Below, piece after piece: positions 30,487 to 50,052 of a DNA stretch of 64,000 nt (position 1 is its first letter; the number at the start of each line of letters is the position of its first letter). The stretch covers positions 124,001-188,000 of the forward strand of contig JAJEEO010000014.1 of NCBI GenBank assembly GCA_022820925.1. The letters run 5' to 3'. The stretch comes from Acidimicrobiia bacterium (GTDB lineage: Bacteria; Actinomycetota; Acidimicrobiia; Acidimicrobiales; Poriferisodalaceae). A model generated the notes under the pieces. The model saw only the letters and a program-made list of their open reading frames with translations. It was not told the origin of the DNA and made no database searches. Made by a program: the position numbers and the translations under genes.

Positions 30487-33201
30487 TCAGTTCGGCGTCA
30501 GCGACTTGTTGACGAAGGCCTCTGGGCGCCAGGAGAGCTTGTCGTCGGCGGTGCCTGCCGAGTTGACCGTCAGCGTCGCCGTGAAGCCTCCGGCGCCGTA
30601 GGCATCAGACGTGCCCGCTCGCAGCGGGTCGAACGGAACGCCCGCCTCACGCACCGGAGGGGGTCCCTCGTCACTGACGGCCGGGGACGGCGGTCCGTAC
30701 ACGAGCGAAGCCCACGTGCCAGACGTCAACACCGTCGCACCGCGGAGGTGCCACACGCCCGAACTCAGGATCGCCTCGCCTTGCGCGGACCCGATGAGGG
30801 TGCCGCGTTCGGTGCGGATGTGCCATGTGGCGGTGAACATGTCGGGCGCGCCGTTGGGCGCAGTCGACGCCGGCGGCGCAACGCCCCGATACAGGTGCAG
30901 CACGATTCGGGTGTCCACGATCGACTCGGACCGGGATCCGAGCATCGCCCGGTCGGTCACGGCGCCGGTCTGGAACAGCCAGCGGGTATGGCCACCCTCG
31001 GGCGGGTCGAGCTCGCTCGGCGTGCCGATAGTGGACGGTTCGTTGGCGTCGATCGGGCCGGTGAGCGCAAAGCGCCGTCCGGTGTCCGCAACGAGCATCA
31101 GCGAATCGGTCGCCGCACCGCTCGGGCCGACACCGCGTGCCACGAGCGGTGCGCCCAGCGTCTCGGCAGGGCCGATGCCCACGCAGGCCGGCGCTCCCCG
31201 ACCAGCGGACCGGACGATGCCATCGGCATCGCGGAGATACCAGCCCTGCTTCGGTACCTCGACAACAGCACGTGTGCCGTCGGTCTCAGCCACCAACCAG
31301 CGAGCATCGCCATAGGTGCCACGCGGCATGCACACCTGCGCGCCGATGTCGTCGTCGCTGTGGAAGATCGGCGACATCGCCATAGTGGTGGCGAATGCAC
31401 CGACGCCGAAGTCGACTCCGGGCGTTGCCTGCACGCCGTAGGGCGAGAACGGGTCGGGCGTCTGGGCGCCGACGAGCACCGGCGAGGTCCGCTGATCTGC
31501 GATCAGGTTGCCGGTCAGTGCTGCGGACACTTCGTCGAGCAAGCTCGGAGTGATCACCTGCTCCCCACCGAACGCCACAGCGAACCCGGGCATCGGGCAC
31601 ACCTCATTGGCCAGGGCTTTCGCATACGCGAGCGGCCCGGTCTGGCTCTCGCACAGCTCCGGTGCGGCGAAGGCATCCAGCAGGAATGCGGCGACGGAAT
31701 CGGGCAGGCGGTCAGCGCCCGCAGGAACCAGCAGCATCGGGACAGCAGTACGGGTGGGCCGCTGCGGCAGCTCTGCATCAGGGTTCGACACCACCGCTGG
31801 CTGGGACACATCCACCGGCGGGAGCATGCGCGCCGGCGCGCCTCGCGACGGTGTGGCTGTCGCTGCCCCGCACCAAGGGCCAGCGCTCAACGCGTCAGCC
31901 CAGCCGCGCTGCTGGCGGCCGCTGTCCGACGATGCCACCAAGCACAGCATTGAAGAAGCAAAGTCGTGACCTGAACCGGACGGCCACCAGCCTCCGAAGT
32001 GCTCGGCCATCGCGACGCTCGTGGCGTACCTGTCCGAGCCAGCCACCCGGATCGTGTTCGCCCGAGCGAGCCGCGCGGCAGACCGCACTGCTGGCTGTGA
32101 CAGTCGCTCCAAGCCCCCGAGCACCACGATGTTCTCGACATCGAGCAGGCTCAGCGCCGTTGCTGTCTCGGTCGGCAATTCGTCGAAGCCATTGTGCAGC
32201 AGCACTGGCACCTGCCAGAAACTGGTCCACCACCCCGCAGCGATGGCATCGATGCCGTCGACACCGTCGGTCAGCACCACCGTGCGGCCGAGCAATCGAC
32301 AGTCCTCAGGAGTTTCCCGCCACTCCACTACCGAATTGGCCCAGAACCCCATCGTCGCTGTGCCATCAGCGGCCGAGGGATCGGCACATCCGGTGGCGCC
32401 GGGGGGAACTGGCGCAGTCCCCAGCGCTGTGGCCACTGCTGCAGCCGTGCCGAAGCGGTTCGAACCCCACACCCGGAACACCTCGGTGTAGCCGATGGAC
32501 ACCAGCTCGGCCTCCACCTCGGGGGCAACAGCAGCAGTTCCGCCGACGATGATCGCCTGCCTCGCCGTCTTGCACCCGCCCGAGCGCAGATCCTGGGCTG
32601 CGAGCCGCGCCGGCACCGCGAGCGCCGTGGCACCGGTGCGGGCCGACGGCGTCAGCAGGATGGGTGCAGCAAAGGTGTCAACGCGAGCGAATCCGCCAGG
32701 CGGGTCGAAGAGCGGATCCGCTGCCGAGGACCGCTGCAAGTACGGCTCGGTGGATTGGCCGGTGGAATCCGACAGCGACGCCGCGGCCAGAGCATCTGCA
32801 GGCGAGTCCCCGGCCACGACGATGATCGCCTTCGGGCACACTCCGACACCCCACCAGCCCCGTGCCTGGCTCAGGCTGCGCACGCCGCCCGAGGAGGGAT
32901 CAGGAGTCTCGAAGGGGAACCCGCCCTGGCCGCGCAGTACCAACGACGTCGCCAGGGAGGTCTGGTAGCGGTCCCAGCCCGAGATGCGCAGTGCGTTGGA
33001 CAAACCCTCGATCTGAGGTGCAGCCAGAAACGAACTCGGCCACTGCGTGGGTGCGACGGGGCCTGCGGCTACCACTGTGGGTTCGGCAGCGGCCGCTGCA
33101 GCGCCTGCCAGCACACCGCCGAACAGCAGCAAAGCCGCGACCGCGGCGCGAAGCGTGCCTCGTCGGGGCTGCGCCGAGATGCCCCGGCGCCGGTGAATCA
33201 C
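30487..33201 (-). CDS. large exported CWB2-repeat protein, 904 residues
   Basis: The GTG start overlaps the TGA of the ECF sigma gene (GTGA), so the two are translationally coupled. An Arg-rich start and hydrophobic segment (VAALLLFGGVLAGAAAAAA) form the signal peptide. Three CWB2 units occupy about 70-560, each with the R-x-x-G-x-x-R-[FY]-x-T mark: RISGWDRYQTS (72), RVWGSNRFGTA (243) and RVAGSDRYATS (385). VIVGG-like strands occur at 217 and 358. CWB2 domains anchor proteins to anionic wall polymers in Firmicutes; that role is inferred here. The C-terminal 340 residues are beta-rich, contain several Cys, and match no family I know. It is the only member with long insertions inside the repeats. 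Confidence 0.85.
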   Translation of the reverse strand: MIHRRRGISAQPRRGTLRAAVAALLLFGGVLAGAAAAAAEPTVVAAGPVAPTQWPSSFLAAPQIEGLSNALRISGWDRYQTSLATSLVLRGQGGFPFETPDPSSGGVRSLSQARGWWGVGVCPKAIIVVAGDSPADALAAASLSDSTGQSTEPYLQRSSAADPLFDPPGGFARVDTFAAPILLTPSARTGATALAVPARLAAQDLRSGGCKTARQAIIVGGTAAVAPEVEAELVSIGYTEVFRVWGSNRFGTAAAVATALGTAPVPPGATGCADPSAADGTATMGFWANSVVEWRETPEDCRLLGRTVVLTDGVDGIDAIAAGWWTSFWQVPVLLHNGFDELPTETATALSLLDVENIVVLGGLERLSQPAVRSAARLARANTIRVAGSDRYATSVAMAEHFGGWWPSGSGHDFASSMLCLVASSDSGRQQRGWADALSAGPWCGAATATPSRGAPARMLPPVDVSQPAVVSNPDAELPQRPTRTAVPMLLVPAGADRLPDSVAAFLLDAFAAPELCESQTGPLAYAKALANEVCPMPGFAVAFGGEQVITPSLLDEVSAALTGNLIADQRTSPVLVGAQTPDPFSPYGVQATPGVDFGVGAFATTMAMSPIFHSDDDIGAQVCMPRGTYGDARWLVAETDGTRAVVEVPKQGWYLRDADGIVRSAGRGAPACVGIGPAETLGAPLVARGVGPSGAATDSLMLVADTGRRFALTGPIDANEPSTIGTPSELDPPEGGHTRWLFQTGAVTDRAMLGSRSESIVDTRIVLHLYRGVAPPASTAPNGAPDMFTATWHIRTERGTLIGSAQGEAILSSGVWHLRGATVLTSGTWASLVYGPPSPAVSDEGPPPVREAGVPFDPLRAGTSDAYGAGGFTATLTVNSAGTADDKLSWRPEAFVNKSLTPN

Positions 33202-34796
33202 GGACCGAGCGTAAGGGTGAGCGACTGCAAAGTGCCGTCATCGGCGAGCATCAGCGTGCCGGACATGGAGCCTCGCTCGGCCAGCGGCAACATGTCGCTC
33301 TGAGTTGCCGTGAAGAGGCCGTCAAGGGGCAGGGAACCGTCAGCCACGGTGCCGCGTGCCGCCAAGCGCATCTCGACGGTCTCGCCACCACCGGCATCGA
33401 GCACCAGCAGGGCACTGAACCGCTGCTGCGCCTCGGGATCGGACGGATCAGCCGCCGACAGCGACGCGCTGCTCGGGGCAATCACGCTCACCGACTCGGT
33501 GGTGGTGGTCACGTCCTCGGTCGTCACGTCGCCGTCCACCGTCGTGGTGGTGGTGGTGACGGTCATCGTGAGCACGCCGCTCACATCGAAGCGATCGGCG
33601 CCTGCAGCGGCGAATGTGAGCTCACCGCCGTCGATCGAACCTGATGTCGTCGTTGTCACCGTCGGTGCGGCCGCGACGACGGTCTGCTGGGCCTCGTCCG
33701 CCTTGGAGACGTCGACGATGGGGTCCGCGGTCGATCCGGCGGTCGCCGCAGCGGCGGCTGCTGCGGGAGCGTCCTCGCCGGGTGCAACGGCTGCGGCGGC
33801 CGGCTCGCTATCTGCGGCAGCCACCGGCTCAGCGATCGCAGGTGCCGTGTTGGACGTTGCTGCGATGCCTTCGGCGGTCGGCAAGGCCGGCACCACGACG
33901 GGTGCGTCGGGCGACGGCACCTCGACGGCCAACGGCGTCAGCACTTCCATGACCGAGTCGGGCAGCACTCGCTCGGCCGCACGGTGTACAGGCGAGTCGA
34001 CGGTGGGGGTGATGACTGCTGTGGCCAGTCCGAGACTCACGGCCGCCTTCGCTACGACCGGCACGCCGGTGGCGGCAGTGTTGGCCGCCGCCGCGGCGGC
34101 CCGCGAGGCCATGGGAGCCGTCTCGGCCAGCAGCGGCATCGCCGAGTTCACTGCGGCCTTGCCGCTGCCCGGCGTCTGTCCTGACAGGGCCGAGGCCGCC
34201 CGCTCTCCCCGGCGCAGCAGCCCGAAGAGTGCGACCGGCGCTGCCGCGGCGAGCTTCAGCGCGGCGCGCACGGCGTTGCGGGCACGGGACACCCGCGCCC
34301 GGGCGTTTTCTTCGGACACGCCAGAGACCCGCGCCACCTCTTCGTAGGAGAGCTCGTCCACGAAGCGCAGCATCAGCGCTTCGCGGTATTGCTCGGAGAG
34401 ATTGTCGATGGCGTCCAGCAGATCGGTGTCGTCGATGTCGAGACCCAGCTCGGCCTCGGTGCTCGGCGGCGGCTTCAGTGCGCGGTCGTTGTTCGCCCAG
34501 CGCTCGGTCTTCTCGTTCGCACGGCGCTGGCGGTTGCCCTCGTCGCTGCAGACGTTGGACAGGATCCGGTGCAGCCACGGGCCCACCCGGTAGTTCCCGT
34601 TGAAGCGCGGCATGGCCCGCAGGGCGCGCACCAGTGCTTCCTGAACGGCGTCCTCGGCCGCCTCTGGGCAACCCAAACGGCGGCGCGCGTGACCGAGCAG
34701 TTGCGGCCGGTACTCACGCACCAGTTCGGCGAACGCTTCGTCGTCGCCAGCCTGGTAGGCAATGACCAGATCTCGATCTTCAAGTCGCAGAGCCAT
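33198..34796 (-). CDS. ECF RNA polymerase sigma factor with long C-terminal extension
   Basis: The product has 532 residues, about three times a normal ECF sigma factor. Region 2 (AFAELVREYRPQLLGHARRR to LHRILSNVCSDEGNRQRR) covers about 20-92. Region 4 (LSEQYREALMLRFVDELSYEE, GVSEENARARVSRARNAV) covers 133-178. Residues 182-264 hold two hydrophobic stretches (LAAAAPVALFGLL, VVAKAAVSLGLATAVI), of which the second may cross the membrane. A long Ala/Pro/Glu-rich linker, Thr-rich runs and a beta-type domain (LTFAAAGADRFDVSGVLTM, LMLADDGTLQSLTL) follow. ATG 34796 gives a typical sigma start; GTG 34829 is possible. It is coupled to the CWB2 protein downstream, its likely target. No separate anti-sigma gene is seen. 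Confidence 0.88.
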   Translation of the reverse strand: MALRLEDRDLVIAYQAGDDEAFAELVREYRPQLLGHARRRLGCPEAAEDAVQEALVRALRAMPRFNGNYRVGPWLHRILSNVCSDEGNRQRRANEKTERWANNDRALKPPPSTEAELGLDIDDTDLLDAIDNLSEQYREALMLRFVDELSYEEVARVSGVSEENARARVSRARNAVRAALKLAAAAPVALFGLLRRGERAASALSGQTPGSGKAAVNSAMPLLAETAPMASRAAAAAANTAATGVPVVAKAAVSLGLATAVITPTVDSPVHRAAERVLPDSVMEVLTPLAVEVPSPDAPVVVPALPTAEGIAATSNTAPAIAEPVAAADSEPAAAAVAPGEDAPAAAAAAATAGSTADPIVDVSKADEAQQTVVAAAPTVTTTTSGSIDGGELTFAAAGADRFDVSGVLTMTVTTTTTTVDGDVTTEDVTTTTESVSVIAPSSASLSAADPSDPEAQQRFSALLVLDAGGGETVEMRLAARGTVADGSLPLDGLFTATQSDMLPLAERGSMSGTLMLADDGTLQSLTLTLGP

Positions 34797-34963
34797 GGCA
34801 AATGGGAAGGCGCGGGGCCTCCGATACACACGATGCTACCGCACCCCTGTCAAACCCTTACCGTCACATTTCCGCCCTGTCAGCAGTTAGCCAACGCCGC
34901 ATTGCGCTGTGGATTGTGCTGTGGATGACAGCCCTCGCTCGGGCCCGAGACGACGCCAGGCGC

Positions 34964-37285
34964 CTAGTGCGCCGCCGTGGGATTGCCTGCAAAATCGTGA
35001 GCGGCGCCGGCGAGCACGACAAGCGTGGAACTCGCCCCGGGCAGTGCTGCGAGCGTCGATGCCGCGATGCGCCCGACGAGGGTGCCGTCACGCTCCTGCC
35101 ACGACCGATCGCAGGCCGCGCTGCCCGCCACCGCCCACTCGCTGCCGTCTGGCGCGGCAACGAACGAGACCCCCGCCGCCGTGGTGCCGTGCCCGTCGAG
35201 GGAGAAGTCCGCGAACCCGTCGGCATCCACGTCGATTCCCATCTTGGACAGATCGATCTCGTGGCCTGAGGGTCCGATTCCGCAGCCGCGAACGGGTTCG
35301 CTCCAACGAACGACGACGTCGACGGCGAAGGTGCCGTCAGCGCCGGCCGCCGGCGCCGAGACAGCGATGCCGCTGGCCCGGGGCGGAGTGGTATCGGCCC
35401 GCACCGTGTGCGTTGCTGTCAAGTTCGTATTGCCGGCCCAGTCGCGCAGCCTCCCGCCGGCGACGCTGATCTTGTCGGCGGCATGCAGCCACGGGGGCTC
35501 GGTGAACGGCAGGTCGCCCACGGCGTAGCCGTCATGTTCCGGGTAGCTGTCATGTTCGGGGAAGCTGAACGTGACGCTGAAGCTCGTGTCGCCCCGCTCC
35601 GTCGTGGCGGTCTGGGTGTTGCGAGCACGGCCACGGGTGAGGGTGACCGTCACCTTGCCCGCGGTGAGCGGCTCGCTCGAACGCACCCACACGGTTTGGC
35701 CGCCAGGCGGGGCGAGCACCGACAGCCGGGGTCGAGCGGTGTCGGCTCGCACGATCAGCTCGCTGGCCTCGACCGTGCGGCGCCCGGCGGCCGCACGTAT
35801 GGCACCCCCGACCACGCCGAGCCGATCTCGCACGGCAATCGGCGTGACGCAGCCCGTCGGCACCTCCGCGCTCGTGTACGCGCCGGTGCCGACCAGCAAG
35901 ACAACCGCCTGGGTGGTGGCTCTTCCGTCACCTCCGTCGATTTCGGCCAGGCGCTCAGGCAGCGTCTGCTGGCCGAACGTGTAGTTGCCGACGTCTTCGG
36001 CGTCTGCGGTGCGGACGGGCTCGCTGAACGTCACCGTCCAGTGACAGGCGCCCTCGGTGGCGTCAATCATCGCCGAGACGGGCGGCTCGCCGGCCTCGTC
36101 GGAGCCAGTGACCACTGCAGTTGCCGCTCGCTCGACCGCCCGCCCGACTGCAGCAGCGCCCCCGAAGATGGTGAGCCGAAGAACGCCGTCTGGGTCGCCG
36201 CCGACCGTGTCAGCGGCCAGAGCGGCTGCCGTGGCGTCGGGCAGGTGTGACGGTGCGGTGAGCAGCAGCGGGTGGCACCGCTCGCCGAGCAGGGGAGCGC
36301 TGGCCACAGCGTCCGCCGGCAAAACGCCGGTCACCAGGCCCACCCCGTCTCCGTCGAAGCACGCGACCGGCGATCGATCGCCGAGCAGCTCTGCGGCGAC
36401 GCGAGCCGCTGTGCCGAAGCGATCACTGCCGTGCCACCGCTCGGTGGTCACGTCCCGCGCCTGGAGCTGGCGGGCTGCAGTCTCGCCGACCGCAGCGGGG
36501 CCACCGAGGATGATCACGTGGTCGACCTGATCGGCGAGATAGTCGATGACCGGTGCGTCGAGCTCCCCGCCGCGAGCGAGCAGCAGCGGGAGACGGCCCC
36601 GGTAGGCGAGTGGACCGGCGGCCAAGCCGTCTGCCGCGTACACGTCAGTGGCGAGCAGTGCGGTGCGCCCGCGGTCCGCGGCCACGCCGGGCGAACCGAC
36701 CGAGCCGACCAAGTCAGCCGAGCCGGAGCCGGCCGGGCCAACCGAACCGAGATGGCGAGCCACCTCCAGCGCTGTGTCCGCGCAGTCAGCACCGCCGAGG
36801 CGCAGCGGTGCTCGGCCGGTGAGCTGCGCCAGCCGGTCGGCGACCTCCGTGGACACTGCTGCAGTGCCGCCCACGACGACTGCATGACCGATGCCGTGAT
36901 CTTCGACGAATGCCTCGACCACCGACGGCAACTCGTCAGCAGCCGTGAGCAGGATCGGAGCCTGCTGCTGTGCCGCGACGGCTGCCGCCGGCAGCGCACA
37001 GGCCGCATAGTCGTCGTCGCCGGGCACGACGATGACCGTCGTCGGCCCGGTGCCCATCGCGCCCGCCCCGGTGCCCACCGCGTCCACCGTGCCGGCGTAA
37101 CGCTCAGCAATTGCAACTGCCGTCTCATATCGAGTGGTGCCGGCCAGCCGCTCGACATCGACGTCGATGTTCGTATCGGCAGCGGCGTCGTCTGCGGCCG
37201 CGTGCGCGACGCCCGGCGATACCGGCAGCAGCACCGCCACCAGTCCGACACAGAGCGAGGCTGCTGCACAAGCCCGCAGCCGCAT
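34964..37285 (-). CDS. exported CWB2-repeat protein with Ig-like and Asp-rich C-terminal domains, 773 residues
   Basis: ATG 37285 lies one base after the stop of the 901-residue gene and opens a signal peptide ending VAHA. CWB2 units run from about 47 (LAGTTRYETAVAIAERYAG) through WHGSDRFGTAARVAAELLG, with VVVGGTAAVSTEV and VIILGGPAAVGE strands. Then comes a SwmB/SbsA-type Ig-like domain (GACHWTVTFSEPVRTADAE), a Cys-containing turn (PTGCVTPIAVRD) and a second Ig-like unit ending DWAGNTNL. The C-terminus carries DVDADGFADFSLDG, a possible Ca2+ loop, and ends in DFAGN. It is the last of three coupled genes; a 167-base gap separates it from the sigma factor gene. Confidence 0.85.
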   Translation of the reverse strand: MRLRACAAASLCVGLVAVLLPVSPGVAHAAADDAAADTNIDVDVERLAGTTRYETAVAIAERYAGTVDAVGTGAGAMGTGPTTVIVVPGDDDYAACALPAAAVAAQQQAPILLTAADELPSVVEAFVEDHGIGHAVVVGGTAAVSTEVADRLAQLTGRAPLRLGGADCADTALEVARHLGSVGPAGSGSADLVGSVGSPGVAADRGRTALLATDVYAADGLAAGPLAYRGRLPLLLARGGELDAPVIDYLADQVDHVIILGGPAAVGETAARQLQARDVTTERWHGSDRFGTAARVAAELLGDRSPVACFDGDGVGLVTGVLPADAVASAPLLGERCHPLLLTAPSHLPDATAAALAADTVGGDPDGVLRLTIFGGAAAVGRAVERAATAVVTGSDEAGEPPVSAMIDATEGACHWTVTFSEPVRTADAEDVGNYTFGQQTLPERLAEIDGGDGRATTQAVVLLVGTGAYTSAEVPTGCVTPIAVRDRLGVVGGAIRAAAGRRTVEASELIVRADTARPRLSVLAPPGGQTVWVRSSEPLTAGKVTVTLTRGRARNTQTATTERGDTSFSVTFSFPEHDSYPEHDGYAVGDLPFTEPPWLHAADKISVAGGRLRDWAGNTNLTATHTVRADTTPPRASGIAVSAPAAGADGTFAVDVVVRWSEPVRGCGIGPSGHEIDLSKMGIDVDADGFADFSLDGHGTTAAGVSFVAAPDGSEWAVAGSAACDRSWQERDGTLVGRIAASTLAALPGASSTLVVLAGAAHDFAGNPTAAH

Positions 37286-37286
37286 G

Positions 37287-39992
37287 TCAGTCCACCACCA
37301 CGTCAGAGTCGTAGCGGATCGACAGCCAGCCCTGCACCACGCTCGGGCGGTCTGCATAGTCGCTCGCGGCGTTGCCGCCGATGAACACCGAATCACCCCG
37401 TTCGGGAAGGCGTGTCGCGCTGGTCGAGTTGAGCAACATGAACACGAGGTTGTCCGGAGCGTCGAAGCTCAGCGTGCACCCGTCACCCCGCCGGTTGAGA
37501 TTGGGCGCGATGTCGGCCAGGAGGGCAATCGGGTCGCTGAGGTCGGCGCTGGTCGCACCAGGGGGCCTGGGAAGGCAGTCGCTCGAGCCCGCGCTGACGC
37601 CGTCGAGCGTCTTGACCGGATCGCTGAAGCGCACCAGCACGCCCACGGCGGTGCCGCCGCCGTCGAACCCCACGCCCGCAGTGACCGTGCCACCGATCGT
37701 CGGGCTGTCTTCGGCCACGCCGACAGCTTCCACCGTGAAGTTGGCCGCAAAAGCGGCACTGGCCCTCAGCGCTTCGGCCAGATCGTCGAACGTCGGCTCG
37801 CCTGCGAGGATCCGGTAGCGAATCAGCCGGGACGTCCGGTTGACCTCCACGCCGATGTCGGGCTCGGGCTCGTCGGCCCCGGTGCCGTCGTCGCCGCCGT
37901 CGCTGTCATCACCCTCGTCGTCGCTCGGGGGCAGGCCGACGCCGTACACCCGCCACTCGTTGCCGCGGCTGCCGGCGGCGATGCCGTCGCGCCGGGCGGT
38001 GATGGTGAGCTGTCCGGACGGCTCTGCGTCCTGCTGTGTGGCTGCGCTGAGGGTCACGCTGGCCGGATTGGCGGTCTCGACATCGCCGATCGTGACCGAT
38101 TCGATCCGGAAGTCGGTGCTGCGGTCTCGCACCACGAAGCGATGGAGCGGATTCCTGCGGCCGTCTTCGTCCAGGAAGACACCCCGCGGCACGGTGATGG
38201 CGTCGCCGACCCCGAGGGTCATGCCGGCGGCAAGCGTCAGCACATAGCGGTCGTGGGGATCCCGGGTGCCCGAACGGCGGCCAGAGTGGCCGGCGGTGCC
38301 ATCGAGGGCCTTGGGGCTGCCATCGTCGGCTACGACGGTGACACGATCGGCCAGGCCAGCAGCGGCCGCAGGCGCGTCGAACGGATTGGCCTCGATGACC
38401 AGCAGCGCGATCTGGTTGTGGCCCGCCGGCGCAATGATCTCCACCTCGGGGGCGTCGTGGTCCTCAGGCTCTTCCGGCTCACCGATCAGGTAGGAGAAGC
38501 GAGCCACCGGGCGGGGGCTGTTGTTGAGGCCGATGCGCTGGCCGCCGGTCACCGTGATGAGGTCGTCCACTTCGAGATCTCTCGACAGCGTCACCGTGAT
38601 GGTGCGGCCCCGAACCCTGGCGCACCCGTACAGCAGGTCAGCGTCGAGGTCGGCACCGGTGAACGTGCACCTCCCGGTCGGGGTGGGGAAGACACGCTCG
38701 TAGTTGACACGGAACATGGCCAGTTCGATGGCCTTCGCGAGCAGCTTCGCATCGACATCGCCCTCGAAGCCCACCGTGAACTCATCGGTGGTCTCCGTGT
38801 CTGGGTCGAGCTCGACGCCGATGCGGCCGCCGATCGGCACCAACGTGGTGGCCCGGTCGACGAACTGCATGACGACCTCAGCAGGCACCACTGCCGTGCC
38901 GCCGAACACCGTCACGGCGAGGTGGTTGTCGGCGTCGCCGGTCACCCACTCGTCGGAACGCAGGAACGACGCCACCGAACGGGGCAGCGTGTCGGAACCG
39001 GTGAGCAACAGCGGGGCGCACAGCTCGCCCAGCAGCGGCCCGCTCGCGATCGCATCGGGCGACAGGCCCCCGAAGGCCAGGCCCAGCTCGGTGCCGTCGA
39101 AGCAGGGCCGCAGCCCGTCGTCGTCGAGCTGCGCCTCTGCCAGCTTGACCGCTGTGGCATAGCGGTCGCTCCCCGCGATGCGGGTGATCTTGAAGTCCAA
39201 GCCCGACAACGCCTGCTGCACTGCGGTGCCCACTGCCGCGGTGCCGCCCACGATGATGAGCCGCCCGATGTCGCTCGCCACGAGGTAGTCGAACACGGCG
39301 GGATGCAGCCGATCCTGGGGTGTGAGCAGGATCGGATAGTTGCCCTGGTAGGCCATCGGACCGGCAGCGAGAGCGTCGGCGAAGGCGTTGCTGGTGGCGA
39401 GCAGCGCAGTGTCGACGCTGACTGGGGCGTTGCCGACGGGATCGTTGAACGATTCGGCGACAGCCGCCGAGTGCAGATGGACATCGTCGCTGCCCAGACG
39501 CTCGATGTCCTCGACGCCCAAGTCGGCGAGCTCACGCTCGACGGCGGCGGAGATCACCCGTGTTCCGCCGAGCAGGATCACCCTGCGTATCGCCCGCCGC
39601 TGCAAGAACTGTGCAGCCGGCACCGGCACGTCGTCGGGACGGGTGAACACCAGCGGGGCGCGGTGCAGCCGCGAGAGCATCGGCACCGGCGTCACCCAGC
39701 CGGCGTGCTCGTCGAGGCCAGAGCCCATGATCACGGTGTCGACCCGGGGCGTGTCGGGCAGCTCGTCGACGGCGGCGATGTAGGCCTCGGCGATCTGCAC
39801 CGACGTGGAGTAGCGGGTGGGGCCGCTCAGACGGGTGAACTCGGCTTCAGCGACCGCTGCGTGCGCAGCATGATGCGGCACCACCAGCAGCGGCACCACC
39901 AGCAGCCCAGCAAGCCGCCGCGGCAACCGAGGCAGACGCGACAGGCGCTGCAGGCGCGAGCATCGTCGCTGGCTCATCAGGTGCCAGCTCAT
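37287..39992 (-). CDS. exported CWB2-repeat protein, 901 residues
   Basis: The start ATG at 39992 shares a base with the TGA of the preceding gene (TGATG), so it is translated by reinitiation. An Arg-rich head and hydrophobic stretch (LAGLLVVPLLVV) form the signal. CWB2 marks are LSGPTRYSTSVQIAEAYIA, RVILLGGTRVIS, RLIIVGGTAAVGTAV and IAGSDRYATAVKLAE; FADALAAGPMAY and PDAIASGPLLGEL are the linking helices. After about 390, non-CWB2 domains follow: a strand-rich segment without the Cys pair of some siblings, an 'AAGN'-type module (GSRGNEWRVYG, then an RIL/TFDDLAEALRAS helix) and a C-terminal beta region. The sibling set suggests a stalk-like surface protein; ligand unknown. Confidence 0.85.
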   Translation of the reverse strand: MSWHLMSQRRCSRLQRLSRLPRLPRRLAGLLVVPLLVVPHHAAHAAVAEAEFTRLSGPTRYSTSVQIAEAYIAAVDELPDTPRVDTVIMGSGLDEHAGWVTPVPMLSRLHRAPLVFTRPDDVPVPAAQFLQRRAIRRVILLGGTRVISAAVERELADLGVEDIERLGSDDVHLHSAAVAESFNDPVGNAPVSVDTALLATSNAFADALAAGPMAYQGNYPILLTPQDRLHPAVFDYLVASDIGRLIIVGGTAAVGTAVQQALSGLDFKITRIAGSDRYATAVKLAEAQLDDDGLRPCFDGTELGLAFGGLSPDAIASGPLLGELCAPLLLTGSDTLPRSVASFLRSDEWVTGDADNHLAVTVFGGTAVVPAEVVMQFVDRATTLVPIGGRIGVELDPDTETTDEFTVGFEGDVDAKLLAKAIELAMFRVNYERVFPTPTGRCTFTGADLDADLLYGCARVRGRTITVTLSRDLEVDDLITVTGGQRIGLNNSPRPVARFSYLIGEPEEPEDHDAPEVEIIAPAGHNQIALLVIEANPFDAPAAAAGLADRVTVVADDGSPKALDGTAGHSGRRSGTRDPHDRYVLTLAAGMTLGVGDAITVPRGVFLDEDGRRNPLHRFVVRDRSTDFRIESVTIGDVETANPASVTLSAATQQDAEPSGQLTITARRDGIAAGSRGNEWRVYGVGLPPSDDEGDDSDGGDDGTGADEPEPDIGVEVNRTSRLIRYRILAGEPTFDDLAEALRASAAFAANFTVEAVGVAEDSPTIGGTVTAGVGFDGGGTAVGVLVRFSDPVKTLDGVSAGSSDCLPRPPGATSADLSDPIALLADIAPNLNRRGDGCTLSFDAPDNLVFMLLNSTSATRLPERGDSVFIGGNAASDYADRPSVVQGWLSIRYDSDVVVD

Positions 39993-42835
39993 CAGGTGCC
40001 GCCCTCGCAGCTCTGACCGGGCGCGTCGGTGGTGGGCTGGCCGTCAACCACGCCAGCCAGCTGTGTTCGCTCGTAGCCGAAGTTGTCGGGGATCGCGGCA
40101 TCCAACCGCATGTTGAAACTCCGCTGCGCCAGGTTCGCTGTGCCGGCGTAGTTGGCAGCCACACCGGCAGGGACACGTACCGGCGTGCCCGCACGAGGCA
40201 ACAGCGCATCATCGATGGCGAAGTACTCCAGGTACACCACCGGGCCTCGACGCTGGCACTGAAGCGCCACATCGGCGTCGCTGGAGTCGCCGCCATCGAG
40301 GAACAGGTCCGCCAGCAACGCCGACGGCACAAAGCCGGTGGCATCAGTGACGGCGGCCACGTTGTCAGTGAACGTCACCCGCACGCCGACCGTGCTGTAG
40401 CCACCGCACATCTCGCCACCCGACGCATCCGCTATGCCCACCGGATCACGCGTCACCAAGGCAGTGCCGGCTGCGGCGCTGCAGCGGAGCGAACCCGATG
40501 ACACCACCCGGGCGCTGAAGTGACGGCGGAACGTCGTGTCGGCGTTCAGCGCCGCCGCCAGGTTGGCCAGCGTGATCTTGCCGTCGACGAACGTATAGCT
40601 GATGATCCGGTGGACCGGGTCGACGCCCACGTCGACGACACTGTCGGCTGGTTCGGTCCGGCCCGGGTCGACATAGGGATAGACGACCCAGCCGTTGCCC
40701 GCTGCGCCCGCCGCGATGCCGGTGGTGCGGGCATCGATCCGCACCCGCTTGCGACCCTCGCAGTCATCAGTACCCGCGGCACCGCAGGTGTTGTTGCCGA
40801 TGTACAGCGAAGCCTGCTTGGTGTGCCGGGGCGTGCCGACTGCTGCACGGCGCACGGCGAACTCGCCGTTGGGGCCGTTGTCGGCATGCTCGGTGACCGT
40901 GTAGCGAGTCAGCCGGCTGGGATTGCGACGCTGGTCGGCCAGCGCCCCCTTGCGCACCGTGATGACATCGCCGACCTCCAGCGGCACCGGGCTCACCCTC
41001 GCCGTGTAGCGAAGATTGGCGCCCAGCGTGGCGGGATCCTCGTAGCACTGCTCGCCGATCTTCGCCGCCTGCGGCGCCGGCAGACCGGCGCGAGGGTTCG
41101 GATCCTCGGGCTTGAGCGGGCAGCTGCCGCCCGTGCCGCCGCCCGCGACGAACGTGACCGCCTTCGGTTCGCCGTCAGCGTCGACCACTGTCAGCTCGTG
41201 GACTTCCTGGCCGCGATAGGTCACGTCGTTGCGCAGCCGGTCGCCGCTGCGCAGCGCCCGCTCGGTCACCACCACCACGAACTCGGCCTCGCCGGCGATC
41301 GCCACGATCTGGACCTGCGGGCCCGTCGAATCAGTCACCGCCGGAGGCCGGGGCACCCGGTGGAACACCGACTCCAGCGCCGGCAGCGTGTCGTCCACCG
41401 CGATCTCGGTGCGGCCCTCGGGGGTGCCCGTCTCGCCGACCACGGTGATGGTGTTGCCCACCACGAGCGGCTCGACCAGCTCGACAGTCACCCGCCGCCC
41501 AGACAGAGTGATCTCGCTGTAGCGCCGCGGGTTTGCAACCGTCGTCGCCTCGCCCTCCGCCACGAGCTCCGTGTTGTTCACCTTGTAGCGCTCAGGCTTG
41601 ATCGCTTCGTCCTCCTTCACGTCCTCGTTGAAGGTGACCGTGAAGGTCGTCGACCCCGCCGACGCCGAGACCTCTGCGGTGAAGGGCTCGCCCCGCTGTG
41701 CGTTGTTCCGCACTGTAGTCACGGTCGGCTCGGCAATCGCCTCCGGCCCACCGAACACCACGACGTCCAACCGGCCGTCCGATCCGCCCAGCAGGTCGCC
41801 GCCGGTCAGCAGATCGTCGGTGGCCGCCGGCACCGCCCGCGGCCGCACCAGCAGCAGCGGCGCGCAGCGCTCCCCCAGCAGCGGCCCGCTGCTGATCGCA
41901 TCGGGTGCTCGCTCGCCTGTCGCCAACCCGATCGTCGAACCGTCGAAGCACGGATCCGGCCGTCCCGTGCCGAGGAGTCGGCGAGCCAGCGCGGCTGCCG
42001 TCCCGTATCGATCTTCACCGGCAATCCGAGTGACCGTGATGCCTTTGGACTGCACAGCCGACACCACCGCAGCGCCGACCGCCACGGTGTCGCCCAGGAT
42101 CACCACATGTTCGATATCGCTGCGATCGAGGTAGTCCGAGACCTGCGGGTTCAACGACGCCCCGGGCGTCAGCAGCAGCGGGTGCTCGCCGTGATAGGCC
42201 AGCGGGCCCGCCACCAGCGCATCAGCGATGGTGGCGCCGTTCGCCAGCAGTGCCGTGCGGCCCCGAGACCCCCACTCGCCCGCCGAACCCGGGATCGGGC
42301 CCACTTCGGCGGCCACTGCCGCGGCAGTCGCAAAGGGGTCGGCGCCCGCGATGCGCCGCACGCTGCCCACCCGAGCTGCCAGGTCATCTGCCACGGCCGC
42401 CGACACCACCCCGGTGCCGCCCAACACCAGCGCCAGCTCGAATCTCTGCTCGTCGAGCAAGGCCGCCACGTCGCCGTGCAGCCTCCCCGGCGGGGTCATC
42501 AGGATCGGGGCGTCGAAGGCCGACGCCAGCCCGGCCGCGGGCATCGCATAGGCCGCGTGGCGGTCCTCGCCCGACACCACGATCACCGCGCTGACCGGCT
42601 CACGATCGAGGTTGTCGGCAATCTCGGCGAGGTAGGCCCTCGCGATCGACACCGAGGTCTCGTACCGGTCGCCGCCGCCGAATCGCTCGGATCCCGTCTC
42701 GGTGACGGTTGCCTGCGTGTGAGGTGCAATGACGAGCGAGCCAGTCGCCGCGACGATCGCGACAAGGGCAGCCGCCGTTGCACGAGAGACCCCCGCCGAG
42801 CGTGCTCGCTGAGGCCTTGATATCGCGGCGAGCAT
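39992..42835 (-). CDS. exported CWB2-repeat protein, 947 residues
   Basis: ATG 42835 follows a 60-base gap after the 888-residue gene. The signal peptide contains ATAAALVAIVAATGSLVI. CWB2 units have FGGGDRYETSVSIARAYLA, IAGADPFATAAAVAAEVG and IAGEDRYGTAAALARRLLG, with VILGDTVAVGAAV and VVFGGPEAIAEP strands and the PDAISSGPLLGERC turn. From about 375 come an Ig-like unit (TTFTVTFNEDVKEDEAIKPE), further beta segments, a Cys-rich stretch, the 'GAAGN' module (GAAGNGWVVYPYVD, then ITLANLAAALNADTTF) and a final beta domain. Its stop overlaps the next start. No catalytic motif is seen. Confidence 0.85.
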   Translation of the reverse strand: MLAAISRPQRARSAGVSRATAAALVAIVAATGSLVIAPHTQATVTETGSERFGGGDRYETSVSIARAYLAEIADNLDREPVSAVIVVSGEDRHAAYAMPAAGLASAFDAPILMTPPGRLHGDVAALLDEQRFELALVLGGTGVVSAAVADDLAARVGSVRRIAGADPFATAAAVAAEVGPIPGSAGEWGSRGRTALLANGATIADALVAGPLAYHGEHPLLLTPGASLNPQVSDYLDRSDIEHVVILGDTVAVGAAVVSAVQSKGITVTRIAGEDRYGTAAALARRLLGTGRPDPCFDGSTIGLATGERAPDAISSGPLLGERCAPLLLVRPRAVPAATDDLLTGGDLLGGSDGRLDVVVFGGPEAIAEPTVTTVRNNAQRGEPFTAEVSASAGSTTFTVTFNEDVKEDEAIKPERYKVNNTELVAEGEATTVANPRRYSEITLSGRRVTVELVEPLVVGNTITVVGETGTPEGRTEIAVDDTLPALESVFHRVPRPPAVTDSTGPQVQIVAIAGEAEFVVVVTERALRSGDRLRNDVTYRGQEVHELTVVDADGEPKAVTFVAGGGTGGSCPLKPEDPNPRAGLPAPQAAKIGEQCYEDPATLGANLRYTARVSPVPLEVGDVITVRKGALADQRRNPSRLTRYTVTEHADNGPNGEFAVRRAAVGTPRHTKQASLYIGNNTCGAAGTDDCEGRKRVRIDARTTGIAAGAAGNGWVVYPYVDPGRTEPADSVVDVGVDPVHRIISYTFVDGKITLANLAAALNADTTFRRHFSARVVSSGSLRCSAAAGTALVTRDPVGIADASGGEMCGGYSTVGVRVTFTDNVAAVTDATGFVPSALLADLFLDGGDSSDADVALQCQRRGPVVYLEYFAIDDALLPRAGTPVRVPAGVAANYAGTANLAQRSFNMRLDAAIPDNFGYERTQLAGVVDGQPTTDAPGQSCEGGT

Positions 42836-45636: not shown

Positions 45637-48600
45637 TTATTGCTTCTGAATGGACACCGTGTGGGTGTCGGAATCGCCGGCGGTGACAGTGATCGTGTAG
45701 CCGCGCACGGTGATCGACTCGCCCACTCCGAGCACGGGGAAGTCGTCGACGATGCCGTCGCCGCTGTCGCCGGCGATCCGCATCGGCAGGTCGCCCGATG
45801 ACACCAGCACGTCGACGGTGTACACCAGCACGCCCTCTTCGATCAGGTGCGGGAAGGTGGTCCGGCCGCCGTTGGTCTGGGTGTAGTCGGTGTCGCGGTC
45901 ATAGCCGAGCTTGCGGCGGCTCTCGATCACCATTACTTCGCGGCCGTTGAGCTGCACAGCGGCCATTGCGACCCCGTCGCCTGGCTGCGCGATGGGCGAC
46001 AGCGTCACCTCGGCCGAGGCGTCGGCCTCAGTCCTGCTGAGGCAGCGAATCTGGGTCTCATCGAGCCAGCCCAGCTGCCATCTGCTCCACGAGAGCATCT
46101 CCTGGGGATTCGGATGCGTCTGGGTGGAGGTCGCCGTGCCGCCGCTCGGGAAGCGCCAGAGGAGTTGCCGCCGGGGATCGTTCTCGGGGGAGAGGAACCA
46201 CGACCACATGTTCATCCGGCCCCACTCGACGCCGACCCACTCATAGCCGCCTCGCGCCCTGGGTTGCTCGTGCGCGTCGTCGTCGTAGGGGTACAGGTCG
46301 AGCAGGCCGAGGTTGTGCACCAGCTCATGCGCGGCAACGCCGCCCCAGTCAGAAGCCTGCGCGAAGGTCCGCGGTTCTGAGCGCCGTACCGAGTTCGTGC
46401 GTGAATGAGGCACCGATTTCCCATCGGCGGACACGACGCCGCCCGCGTTGCCTCCAGAGAAGTGGGTGCTGGGGAAGATCGTCATCACGGCGTCCACGTC
46501 GGAGAAATCCACCTCGTCGTCGGCCAGAGCCACCGCGTGCTCTCCTGCTGCGCTGGCCAACGACTGGCCGAGTGCTGTTGGGCCTTCCAGCTCGATCGAG
46601 GGCCGCTCGGCTCGCAGCCAGCTGTGGTGCGCGATGACCTCGACGTCGAGGCGTCCATAGCTGACCGCTTCGAGGTATGCCTCCATGAACGGCAGGCCCC
46701 GCTCGGCCTCGTCTCGAGTGGTGTGCTGTGCCTGCGCGTCGGAGAAGTCCATGAAGAGCACCGCGACGCGCAGCGTGCCGATGGACGGCGCAAACCAGTC
46801 CGGCAGTGGAAAGCCTGCGGTGGTGTCATCGAGGCCGCGTGGCATGCACGTGGCGGCGGCTGTCTCGGTGCCGCCTGCGCCCGCCACATAGACGCTGCGG
46901 CCTTGGTCGGCCTCGTCGTTGGTGAAGACGATGAGCTGGCCGTCGGGCGACCAGCGGGGGCCGAAGTCGTGTCCCGGCAGGTCGGCCACGACGGCTTCGT
47001 TCGAAGCGTCGACTCCGGCGACGACGATTGCGGACTCGTTTTCATCGCCCCGCACGTATGCGATACGGCGACCGTCAGGAGACCATGAGACGCCGCCGTT
47101 CCAGTAGGCGCCCGCGAGCAGGCGCCGCTGGTTCGAGCCGTCGGCGTCCACGAGCCACACGAGGTTGTTCGAGACGTACGCGATGCGGGTGCCGTCGGGC
47201 GACCACGCCGGCGCATGATCCCACCAGCTGCGCGGTGTGAGCTCGAACGGCTTCGAGCCGACCGGGTCCATCACCGCGACGTAGCGATCGCCGTTGATGA
47301 AGTGGCCGTTCTCGTCGCGGCCGTCGCCCGCCAGGCGTTGGAATGCGATCTTGGTGCCGTCAGGCGACCAGGTGGGCAGGCTGTCGTGCACATCGCCCTT
47401 GGACACCTTGGTGCGTTCGGTGCCGTCGGCATTCACGACATAGATGTGGGAGAACCAGTTGCCGTCGTCGTTGCGGCGGCCGCGTGAGTAGGCGATTCTG
47501 GTGCCGTCAGGCGACCAGGCCGGCTCGTCGGAGTACGAGCCGTCGTGGCTCGTCAGCCGCGTCACGTCGGATCCGTCGTTGTTCATCGTCCACAGCGATC
47601 CGTCCCGGGAGAACACGATCCGACTGCAGTCGGGTGACCATGCGGGATCCTCCGCGTCGTCGTCGGTGGTGAGTTGCCGCGGATCGTCGTCGAGCGAGCC
47701 GCCGCATGTGCCGGCGGGCAGCACGCCTGGCGCGGTGCTGGCCTCACCGTCGTCGGCCTGGTCGTCTCCTTCGCTGTCGTCGGCCCCGTCGGCTTCGTCG
47801 GCTTCGTCGGTGTCGGGTTCCTCGCCGGTGAGGTAGGCGTCGATGGCTGCCTGGGACACGGCCGCGTCGCCGCCGAACACCCGCAAGCCCACAGCGTCGT
47901 GCGCTTCACGGGCAGCGTCGAGGTAGGCAGCAGTGTCGTCGGGAATGTCGGCGGGATCGGCGAGCACCAGCGGGGCGCACAGCCGGCCCAGCAGCGGCGC
48001 TGCGCTGAACGAGTCGAACGGCACCCGCGCCCGGGCGACGCCGACGGTGTCGTTCGCGAAACACGTCGTGCCCGCCGCGGCGCTGTAGCGGTCGGCGGCG
48101 AGCTCGGCGGCCTTCACGGCGGTGTCGTAGCGAGTGCGGCCCGCCACGCGAGAGACATCGATGCCGAGGTCCTTGACGGACTGCTCGACGGCGTCGCTGA
48201 GCGCTGCGGTGCCGCCCATGAGCACGACGTGCTCGACGCCGGCGTCGCCGAGGTAGCCGGCCACATCCGCGTGCAGCTCGTCGGGCGAGCTCAGCAGCAC
48301 CGGATGGATGCCGCGAGCCGCGAACGGGCCCGCCACCAGTGCATCCGCGAACACGTCGCCGCTGGCGATCACCGCCGTGCGACCCAGATCGCCCATCGCT
48401 CCCGGCGTCACCCGCTCCGCAGCCGCCACTCCGGTGCCGAACCGGTCATCGCCTGCGACACGCTCCGCGGAGATCCCGGCCTCACCCAGCGCTTCGAGCA
48501 CCTCGTCGGCCACGCCGCGACCGGGGCCGTGCTCGCCGCCGCTCGCGTCAGGCCCCACCACCAGCGCCTTGGAAACACCCACCCGCCCCAGGAACTCGAG

Positions 48601-48927
48601 CGCATCGGCCCGCAGCTCCCCGGGTGGCGTCATCAGCACCGGCGCGCCCAGTGCACCGGCCACCGGCGCGGCAACCACCGCATCGGTCCACCGCCGGCCC
48701 GACACCAGCACCACCCACTCCAGCGAGCCGCCAGCATCGGCAGCCACCGCTTCGGCGACCTGCAGCGACGTCACATACCGATCCGCGCCGCCATAGCGCA
48801 CCACCGACACATCCGAGACGTCGCCTGGGCCGTCGTGCTCAGCGGCTCCGACAGCAGTGGCCGGAAGCACCAGAACGCCACCGAACGCAACGAGCGCTGC
48901 AAGCAGGACGACCCCGAGGCGACGCAT
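45637..48927 (-). CDS. exported CWB2 / beta-propeller / M6-like metalloprotease protein, 1096 residues
   Basis: ATG 48927 is used because it starts a standard signal peptide (VVLLAALVAFGGVLVLPATAVGA); the frame is open a further 143 codons upstream without coding character. Residues 40-390: three CWB2 units (YGGADRYVTSLQVAEAV, VAGDDRFGTGVAAAERV, VAGRTRYDTAVKAAELA; VVLMGGTAALSDAV). A Glu/Asp linker (about 390-430) follows, then six or more WSPDG blades to about 690. The C-terminal part has IGTLRVAVLFMDFSDAQ and HELVHNLGLLDLY near 865, the HExxHxxGLxDLY zinc site of M6 (immune inhibitor A-type) peptidases, then WSRWQLGWL as in that family. It is probably a wall-attached protease; the substrate is unknown. 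Confidence 0.9.
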   Translation of the reverse strand: MRRLGVVLLAALVAFGGVLVLPATAVGAAEHDGPGDVSDVSVVRYGGADRYVTSLQVAEAVAADAGGSLEWVVLVSGRRWTDAVVAAPVAGALGAPVLMTPPGELRADALEFLGRVGVSKALVVGPDASGGEHGPGRGVADEVLEALGEAGISAERVAGDDRFGTGVAAAERVTPGAMGDLGRTAVIASGDVFADALVAGPFAARGIHPVLLSSPDELHADVAGYLGDAGVEHVVLMGGTAALSDAVEQSVKDLGIDVSRVAGRTRYDTAVKAAELAADRYSAAAGTTCFANDTVGVARARVPFDSFSAAPLLGRLCAPLVLADPADIPDDTAAYLDAAREAHDAVGLRVFGGDAAVSQAAIDAYLTGEEPDTDEADEADGADDSEGDDQADDGEASTAPGVLPAGTCGGSLDDDPRQLTTDDDAEDPAWSPDCSRIVFSRDGSLWTMNNDGSDVTRLTSHDGSYSDEPAWSPDGTRIAYSRGRRNDDGNWFSHIYVVNADGTERTKVSKGDVHDSLPTWSPDGTKIAFQRLAGDGRDENGHFINGDRYVAVMDPVGSKPFELTPRSWWDHAPAWSPDGTRIAYVSNNLVWLVDADGSNQRRLLAGAYWNGGVSWSPDGRRIAYVRGDENESAIVVAGVDASNEAVVADLPGHDFGPRWSPDGQLIVFTNDEADQGRSVYVAGAGGTETAAATCMPRGLDDTTAGFPLPDWFAPSIGTLRVAVLFMDFSDAQAQHTTRDEAERGLPFMEAYLEAVSYGRLDVEVIAHHSWLRAERPSIELEGPTALGQSLASAAGEHAVALADDEVDFSDVDAVMTIFPSTHFSGGNAGGVVSADGKSVPHSRTNSVRRSEPRTFAQASDWGGVAAHELVHNLGLLDLYPYDDDAHEQPRARGGYEWVGVEWGRMNMWSWFLSPENDPRRQLLWRFPSGGTATSTQTHPNPQEMLSWSRWQLGWLDETQIRCLSRTEADASAEVTLSPIAQPGDGVAMAAVQLNGREVMVIESRRKLGYDRDTDYTQTNGGRTTFPHLIEEGVLVYTVDVLVSSGDLPMRIAGDSGDGIVDDFPVLGVGESITVRGYTITVTAGDSDTHTVSIQKQ

Positions 48928-49098
48928 GCCGGGCAACCTACTTCGGCTCCCGGTCCAGGAGCAGCGCTGATGTCCATAACCGGCGGCAGCAGAGGCGGTC
49001 TCAACGCCGAGCGCGGCAGCGTCCGAGGCGCACGTGAGCTGGCCCACGGGCTGACCTACGGTGAGACTCTCGGTGAGGTGACCGGGACGGGGAGCTCC

Positions 49099-50052
49099 AT
49101 GAGTCGATGGTCGAGCGCGGCGCTGGTGCTGCTGGCAGTGGCGGCGGCAGGCGTGCTGGCAGCCGGCTGCGCGACCGCACCCGACAAGCTGAGCTACATC
49201 GTGGTGCCGCACCCCGACGACGAGATGCAGGCCTGGCCGCTCATCGAGAACACTCCCGACACCTACAAGGTCTTCATCATGCTGACCAGGGGCGAGCAGA
49301 CGGCGTATTGCAACGGGCGGGGGTACGACCAGGGCTCGGGCGAGGCAGAGCCCCATCCGTGGCCCGCCGGCAAGTGGACGTCGTCGTGCGAGAAAGCCCG
49401 CCAGAACTCGTTCTTCCGCTTCATTGCGGGAATGGCAGAGAGCGACAGCGGCCTGCCACGCGAATTCTCATTCGAAGGCGTCAAGGGCCCCTTCGATTCG
49501 CTCGGCCACTCGATCTGCCGCCTCGACGACGGCGATTGCGTCACCGATCTCACGGCCGAGGTGTGGACATCGCCGCTGGGGGCCGTCGTGTGGTTCAACC
49601 TGGGCGACGGCGACCTGTCCAAGGAAGAAGCCGAGTGGGCCATCACCACGGTCCGCGACAACCGAGTAGCCCTCGGCATCGACAGCTCGCTGCCCTCGCA
49701 CAGCCTGATCGGCGCGAGCTACTCGAACCCAGGTTTCGACGGCTGTTTCCTCTACGACCACCCGGACCACTGGGCGGTCCAGCTCGCCCTCTGGACCACC
49801 GACTACGGCGTCGGCCAGCAGACGGCGCCGAGCTGCCGCAACGACCCGGTGGTCTCCCGCCACGAGCAGGTGTCGATGAAGGCGTTCGACGCTGCGTTCG
49901 AGGTTGCAGAGACCACCCGGGTGGGCACGCACGTCGTCTTCTACGGCTGGCTGTTCAGCGACGAACCTGGCTACTGGCCCGGCGACTACGACGGCCAGGA
50001 CGAGCTGTTCCACCGGCACCAGTCGTTCTGGGTCCAATACGGCGATTCGTGA
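49099..50052 (+). CDS. PIG-L (LmbE) family deacetylase, lipoprotein
   Basis: This is a 317-residue protein. ATG 49099 follows GGGGAG; the open frame continues far upstream only as a shadow of the protease gene. The signal is a lipobox, VLAAGC, with Cys24. The zinc and catalytic motif PHPDDE is at 37-42 and the second motif, DHPDHWAVQLAL, lies in the C-terminal half, where the family has its third metal ligand. PIG-L enzymes remove acetyl groups from N-acetylglucosaminyl lipids, mycothiol precursors or surface glycans. A membrane-anchored extracellular member most likely acts on a wall or lipid-linked glycan. It has Cys residues (CNGRG, SSCEKA, ICRLDDGDC) that could form disulfides outside the cell. 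Confidence 0.85.
   Translation: MSRWSSAALVLLAVAAAGVLAAGCATAPDKLSYIVVPHPDDEMQAWPLIENTPDTYKVFIMLTRGEQTAYCNGRGYDQGSGEAEPHPWPAGKWTSSCEKARQNSFFRFIAGMAESDSGLPREFSFEGVKGPFDSLGHSICRLDDGDCVTDLTAEVWTSPLGAVVWFNLGDGDLSKEEAEWAITTVRDNRVALGIDSSLPSHSLIGASYSNPGFDGCFLYDHPDHWAVQLALWTTDYGVGQQTAPSCRNDPVVSRHEQVSMKAFDAAFEVAETTRVGTHVVFYGWLFSDEPGYWPGDYDGQDELFHRHQSFWVQYGDS

What the first reader, a model, noticed from the sequence alone, without database searches (positions are those of the whole stretch)
33198..34796. ECF sigma factor with a probable membrane-crossing extension, coupled to a surface protein
The sigma domains occupy only the first 180 of 532 residues. Hydrophobic segments and a long Ala/Pro, Thr-rich and beta-type tail follow, and the GTG of the 904-residue CWB2 gene overlaps its stop. 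No anti-sigma gene is adjacent. A sensor fused to its own sigma factor, linked to surface protein genes, could report on the envelope. ECF factors with C-terminal extensions exist in Actinobacteria; this pairing seems new to me.
Basis: partly seen in the sequence, partly recalled or inferred. Interest (0 to 1): 0.75.

Follow-up and report, generated by a model that had tools for sequence, protein, structure and literature searches.

The report
Sigma factor paired with surface protein
This is a gene-switching protein (an ECF sigma factor) that carries its own probable membrane anchor and a barrel-shaped outer domain, and in one order of Actinobacteria it is inherited together with one particular cell-surface protein, which suggests the pair reports the state of the cell's outer coat directly to the transcription machinery.

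Summary
Residues 1-180 are an ordinary ECF sigma factor (regions 2 and 4). Residues 181-532 are a conserved extension: a short hydrophobic segment, an Ala-rich stretch, a conserved Lys followed by 15-24 nonpolar residues (probable but marginal membrane helix), a long acidic linker, and a confidently predicted all-beta barrel (pLDDT 91) without any Pfam match. There is no zinc-finger anti-sigma domain. The next gene, a divergent CWB2 protein, overlaps by GTGA. The pairing is not chance: in the window's family exactly the same 12 of 39 genomes hold both genes, and two relatives with other CWB2 genes lack both. Across 397 genomes of the order, tailed sigmas were found in 16, all with CWB2 genes, 15 with the partner. 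Tailed sigmas form one clade; the one untailed member lies in a genome without CWB2. Best reading: a self-tethered ECF sigma whose outer barrel reads a cognate surface protein. It works like ECF52/53 or IutY but fails their zinc-finger or FecR criterion. Topology, release and targets are inferred; no shared ECF promoter was found before CWB2 genes. New variant of a known kind.

The parts
33198..34796 (-). ECF sigma factor gene with C-terminal extension (532 aa; 484-586 aa in relatives)
   Evidence: orthologues
34521..34724 (-). sigma region 2 (residues 25-92)
   Evidence: Pfam PF04542
34266..34424 (-). sigma region 4 (residues 125-177)
   Evidence: Pfam PF08281/PF04545
34215..34253 (-). S1: short hydrophobic segment (residues 182-194) flanked by Lys and Arg-Arg; conserved, too short to span on its own
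33999..34064 (-). S2: probable membrane helix (residues 245-266), invariant Lys250 then 16 residues without D, E, K, R, N or Q
33672..33998 (-). variable acidic Ala/Pro/Thr linker (residues 267-375), predicted disordered
33201..33671 (-). C-terminal 8-strand beta barrel domain (residues 376-532)
   Evidence: AlphaFold pLDDT 90.6, pTM 0.80; structural matches; no Pfam match
30487..33201 (-). partner gene: divergent CWB2 surface protein (904 aa, signal-peptide-like N-terminus), co-inherited with the sigma gene
33198..33201 (-). GTGA stop/start overlap (likely translational coupling)
34861..34871 (-). AAATGTGACGG: element upstream of the sigma gene kept (AATGTGAC core) in all 10 genus orthologues
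34831..34842 (-). GCGGTAGCATCG: probable -10 region (TAGCAT) kept in all 10 genus orthologues
34964..42835 (-). three close-packed CWB2 genes upstream (34964-37285, 37287-39992, 39992-42835)

Best explanation
A self-tethered ECF sigma factor working with a cognate surface protein. The sigma domains (residues 1-180) sit in the cytoplasm; one membrane helix (S2, about residues 245-266) anchors the protein with its C-terminus outside; a long flexible acidic linker threads into the cell wall; and the beta barrel at the end reads the partner CWB2 protein encoded by the next, translationally coupled gene, or a ligand or wall polymer that it presents. A change in this outer complex frees or activates the sigma domain, most likely by proteolysis at or near the membrane, and it then directs transcription, probably of its own operon and envelope genes. 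SHOWN: domain architecture, conservation, barrel prediction, near-obligate co-inheritance and usual adjacency with the partner. INFERRED: topology, contact between barrel and partner, release mechanism, target genes.
For: Architecture conserved in 12 genomes of the family and in further families of the order. In the 22 tailed proteins tabulated, a Lys precedes 15-24 residues without D, E, K, R, N or Q; the S1-S2 stretch is net basic (7 K+R against 2 D+E in the window protein) and the tail net acidic (8 against 37) and Cys-free in most, which the positive-inside rule reads as N-in/C-out. Barrel modelled at pLDDT 90.6, with ligand-binding barrels among its structural matches. Sigma and partner occur in exactly the same 12 of 39 family genomes (p 2.6e-10); order-wide 15 of 16 tailed-sigma genomes have the partner. 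Four-base overlaps between the two genes recur in several lineages. One sigma clade, 99/92 support; the only untailed member, L054, lies in a genome without CWB2. A site-2-type protease gene is present in the genome, only a permissive fact.
Against: S2 is weak as a membrane helix (scan value about 1.1-2.5 against 3-5 for cytosolic controls and -2.3 to 1.8 for a polytopic control, parameters from memory); S1 mostly scores better than S2 but is short and flanked by basic residues. If both insert, the barrel is cytoplasmic. AlphaFold gives no confidence for residues 182-374. No ECF-type -35 (GGAAC) enrichment before CWB2 genes, so regulation of CWB2 genes by this sigma is unsupported. Six genus members do not have the partner directly downstream (same cluster 1-13 kb away, or on another contig). 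G188 has a tailed sigma and no detected partner.
Confidence: 0.5

Rival explanations
1. Cytoplasmic ligand-sensing ECF: S1 and S2 form a membrane hairpin or pack in the cytosol, the barrel is cytoplasmic and regulates the sigma domain directly, as C-terminal domains do in ECF41/ECF56; the CWB2 partner is only a target gene.
For: Membrane segments are weak; two hydrophobic segments allow a hairpin; many barrel neighbours are soluble ligand-binding or enzyme barrels (PloI4, AbyU, dirigent, DUF3237).
Against: The S1-S2 loop is net basic and the tail net acidic, Ser/Thr/Pro-rich and nearly Cys-free, the reverse of what the positive-inside rule expects for a hairpin; about 110 residues of low-complexity linker separate S2 from the barrel; no SnoaL_2 match.
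Confidence: 0.22
2. Member of the known zinc-finger-fused groups (ECF52/53/48): sigma, anti-sigma zinc finger, membrane helix, proline-rich region, outer carbohydrate-binding domain.
For: Same order of parts except the zinc finger: sigma, membrane segment, Pro/Ala/Thr-rich linker, outer beta domain; same phylum (PMC5826349, PMC8999054).
Against: No zinc-finger match at E 0.1 in P0001 or at E 0.05 in eight distant relatives; no HxxxCxxC motif; no carbohydrate-binding Pfam match.
Confidence: 0.1
3. Surface-layer assembly or localisation factor: tethering places the sigma (and RNA polymerase) near the membrane so that surface-protein genes are transcribed and exported at the envelope, without signal sensing.
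For: Location inside large CWB2 clusters (71 CWB2 domains in the genome) and probable translational coupling to a secreted protein.
Against: A conserved folded barrel domain and one specific partner are more than a tether needs; no shared ECF promoter before CWB2 genes.
Confidence: 0.1
4. Neighbourhood accident: a CWB2 cluster that happens to hold a sigma gene with a low-complexity C-terminus.
For: CWB2 genes are numerous in this genome, so adjacency alone would be cheap.
Against: Perfect co-occurrence with one specific gene over 39 genomes and near-perfect over 397; a CWB2 gene next to the sigma in several families; tail and CWB2 both missing in G282.
Confidence: 0.02

Closest known systems
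ECF52 (SCO4117 of Streptomyces coelicolor) and ECF53/ECF48
   Same: Actinobacterial ECF sigma with a long C-terminal extension: membrane segment, Pro-rich linker, outer domain (PMC5826349; PMC8999054)
   Different: They carry a zinc-finger anti-sigma domain, and ECF52 a carbohydrate-binding domain; neither is found here. This protein has an unclassified beta barrel and a linked, co-inherited surface protein.
IutY of Pseudomonas putida (ECF243)
   Same: ECF sigma fused to a membrane-crossing regulator; release by regulated intramembrane proteolysis was shown there (PMC8999054)
   Different: IutY's extension is a fused membrane-bound anti-sigma factor of an iron cell-surface signalling system; here no such domain matches
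ECF41/ECF42/ECF56 (soluble C-terminal regulatory domains)
   Same: Regulation in cis by a C-terminal domain
   Different: ECF56 has a SnoaL_2 domain (PMC7730460); here an all-beta barrel sits behind a hydrophobic segment and a long linker
VtrA/VtrC and ToxR/ToxS (Vibrio)
   Same: As an idea: a membrane-tethered transcription factor with a lipocalin-like outer sensor. PDB 5kew and 8u2f appear among the structural matches at Z about 5; what they do is from general knowledge
   Different: Not sigma factors; Z 5 is no evidence of relatedness; sensor and anchor are separate subunits there
CWB2 cell wall proteins (PF04122, as in Clostridioides difficile SlpA/Cwp)
   Same: The partner has three CWB2 stretches, the module found in C. 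difficile S-layer proteins (PMC8881574, listed)
   Different: The partner is a divergent, conserved family of its own (profile A4), coupled to a sigma gene

Membership tests
ECF (group 4) sigma factor | regions 2 and 4 only | tested here: met
   Pfam r2 and r4, TIGR02937 over cut-off
ECF52/ECF53/ECF48 | zinc-finger anti-sigma domain in the extension | tested here: not met
   no Pfam zinc finger, no HxxxCxxC motif
ECF52/ECF53/ECF48 | membrane helix after the sigma domain | tested here: inconclusive
   marginal but conserved S2
ECF52 | C-terminal carbohydrate-binding domain | tested here: inconclusive
   no Pfam match; barrel fold predicted, ligand unknown
ECF52/ECF53/ECF48 | sigma domain falls in the group's published model | not testable with these tools
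   ECF group models not available; the classification paper is not held
ECF243 (IutY-like) | FecR-type anti-sigma domain fused | tested here: not met
   no FecR match
ECF56/ECF41 | C-terminal SnoaL_2 domain | tested here: not met
   no SnoaL match
CWB2 surface protein (partner) | PF04122 repeats over cut-off, secreted | tested here: met
   89 bits against a cut-off of 24.9, three stretches; signal-peptide-like N-terminus by eye

The most novel reading that the evidence does not exclude
A so far undescribed ECF group of the order in which the sigma factor is its own transmembrane receptor without any anti-sigma domain: a surface barrel recognises a dedicated CWB2 protein, so that assembly or damage of the surface layer is reported straight to RNA polymerase by a two-gene module.
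Probability: 0.35. Interest if true: 0.8.

Novelty: new variant of a known kind. Interest (0 to 1): 0.62.

Why it matters
How Gram-positive bacteria sense the state of their surface layer is little known. A sigma factor that is its own membrane receptor, co-inherited with one surface protein, would be a minimal surface-to-promoter circuit and a compact system for testing how a membrane-bound sigma is held inactive without an anti-sigma domain. It also gives a function lead for one of the many CWB2 proteins of Acidimicrobiia, most of them known only from metagenomes.

Tried and rejected
Shared ECF promoter before CWB2 genes: GGAAC, TGTGAC and AAATGTGAC are not enriched in 61 CWB2 upstream regions; only a TAGNNT -10 about 13 bases before the start is, which looks like an ordinary leaderless-type promoter. 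No background set of non-CWB2 genes was run, so its specificity is unknown. AAATGTGACGG occurs once in the window. Full-length AlphaFold gave no confident fold for residues 182-374. Foldseek gave no significant match for the barrel (best E 0.016); VIA-align's best is 3g7g, Z 10.7 at 10% identity, so a barrel fold is likely but no family is assigned; absence of a family from that list excludes nothing. Two tail-profile hits (G174, G247) turned out to be unrelated proteins. No Rfam element before the gene. ECF group assignment could not be done. Two literature searches aimed at this pairing found nothing relevant, within an open-licence library only.

Full report
WHAT IS THERE. The ORF lies on the minus strand, 33198-34796. 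Residues 25-177 match sigma-70 regions 2 and 4, with nothing else in Pfam; the protein is over the cut-off of the general ECF model TIGR02937 but of no specific subfamily among those listed. It is one of five ECF-type hits in its genome. The stop overlaps the GTG of the 904-aa CWB2 gene as GTGA. No anti-sigma gene is adjacent.

THE EXTENSION. The window protein and 11 orthologues of the same GTDB family align over the full length (39-83% identity). Behind region 4 come S1 (about 13 hydrophobic residues between Lys and Arg-Arg), an Ala-rich stretch, then S2, (V/I)P(V)(V)AKAAVGxGLATAV, with an invariant Lys, a variable acidic linker, and a conserved C-terminal domain. In 22 tailed proteins the Lys is followed by 15-24 residues without D, E, K, R, N or Q. 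A hydrophobicity scan with parameters recalled from memory, calibrated on controls in the same run, puts S1 at 0.4-1.9 (one at -0.4) and S2 at 1.1-2.5, between cytosolic controls (3-5) and a polytopic control (-2.3 to 1.8). Membrane insertion is therefore likely but marginal. The basic S1-S2 stretch and the acidic, nearly Cys-free tail favour N-in/C-out with S2 as the only span. No HxxxCxxC motif or zinc-finger match exists.

THE BARREL. Folded alone with 13 relatives, residues 376-532 give an all-beta barrel of eight strands, pLDDT 90.6, pTM 0.80. Pfam and PDB sequence searches find no relative. Structural neighbours are closed barrels of several families (3g7g Z 10.7; DUF3237; PloI4/AbyU; dirigent proteins; streptavidin), none significant by Foldseek. 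The fold is credible; its ligand is unknown.

THE PARTNER. In the family the tailed sigma is in 12 of 39 genomes and the window's partner CWB2 gene in the same 12. G018 and G003 have other CWB2 genes but neither of the pair. Two genera show the correlation inside the genus: g6 (G011 only) and g10 (G038 yes, G037 no). Fisher p is 2.6e-10, not corrected for relatedness. The two genes are adjacent in the window, G016, G024, G020, G011 and G038; in G015, G017, G019 and G023 the partner lies 1-13 kb away in the same CWB2 cluster; in G021 and G022 it is on another contig.

BEYOND THE FAMILY. Over 397 genomes of the order the barrel profile finds 14 true tailed sigmas (two false hits removed); G323 and G206 (which shares contig numbers and coordinates with G283, the genome of L055) were added by inspection, making 16. 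All 16 are among the 52 genomes with CWB2; 15 have the partner or, in G206, a divergent partner-like gene. Only G188 lacks it. A CWB2 gene follows the sigma gene in G051, G096, G167, G221, G287 and G323 and in the loci L050, L052, L053 and L055 (L053 is G051); in G051 a canonical CWB2 gene comes first and the partner later. Collapsed to genera with CWB2, 7 have both, 1 the sigma only, 28 neither: p 9.6e-7, without G206. A sample of 396 genomes of the phylum finds the partner only in G000 and G287.

ORIGIN. In a tree of 105 ECF sigma domains all tailed sigmas fall in one clade (99/92), together with one untailed sequence, L054 (bootstrap not fully settled). No barrel is found in any of the three forward frames behind L054 and its genome has no CWB2 match. 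Tail, partner and CWB2 thus seem to be lost together, on one metagenome-assembled case.

PROMOTERS. Upstream of the sigma gene two boxes, AATGTGAC and GCGGTAGCATC, are kept in all ten genus orthologues while the rest aligns poorly. Before CWB2 genes no ECF-type -35 is enriched; a TAGNNT -10 some 13 bases before the start is. There is no evidence that this sigma transcribes the CWB2 genes.

MECHANISM. Best reading: a self-tethered ECF sigma whose outer barrel reads its coupled surface protein, with release most likely by proteolysis as shown for IutY and proposed for ECF52/53 (PMC8999054, PMC5826349). About 110 linker residues could cross much of a wall (inference). Architecture, conservation and co-inheritance are shown; topology, contact, release and regulon are inferred. 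The main rival, a cytoplasmic barrel, is not excluded.

NOVELTY. Fused membrane-tethered ECF factors are known, so this is a new variant: no recognisable anti-sigma domain, an unclassified barrel, and a co-inherited surface protein. No paper on the pairing was found in the held library.

Noticed in passing
window 30487-58812, minus strand; G000:C10 and C8: Large expansion of CWB2 surface-protein genes: nine in the window, 71 CWB2 domain matches in the genome (95 in G024), in long same-strand clusters.
   Followed up: partly
upstream of CWB2 genes in the window and L127-L137: TAGNNT exactly 13 bases before the chosen start codon in about ten CWB2 genes, suggesting leaderless transcripts.
   Followed up: partly
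window 45637-49356, minus strand: CWB2 gene whose C-terminal part has TolB/WD40-like repeats and an HELVH motif, by eye a surface-anchored metalloprotease.
   Followed up: no
L040 (G020), upstream of the sigma gene: An 11-base insertion, about one helical turn, between the two otherwise conserved upstream boxes.
   Followed up: no
L054: Untailed member of the sigma clade, followed by a glycosyltransferase-like frame, in a genome without CWB2.
   Followed up: yes
L155 (G188): Only tailed sigma without a detected partner gene; the genome still has CWB2 genes elsewhere.
   Followed up: partly
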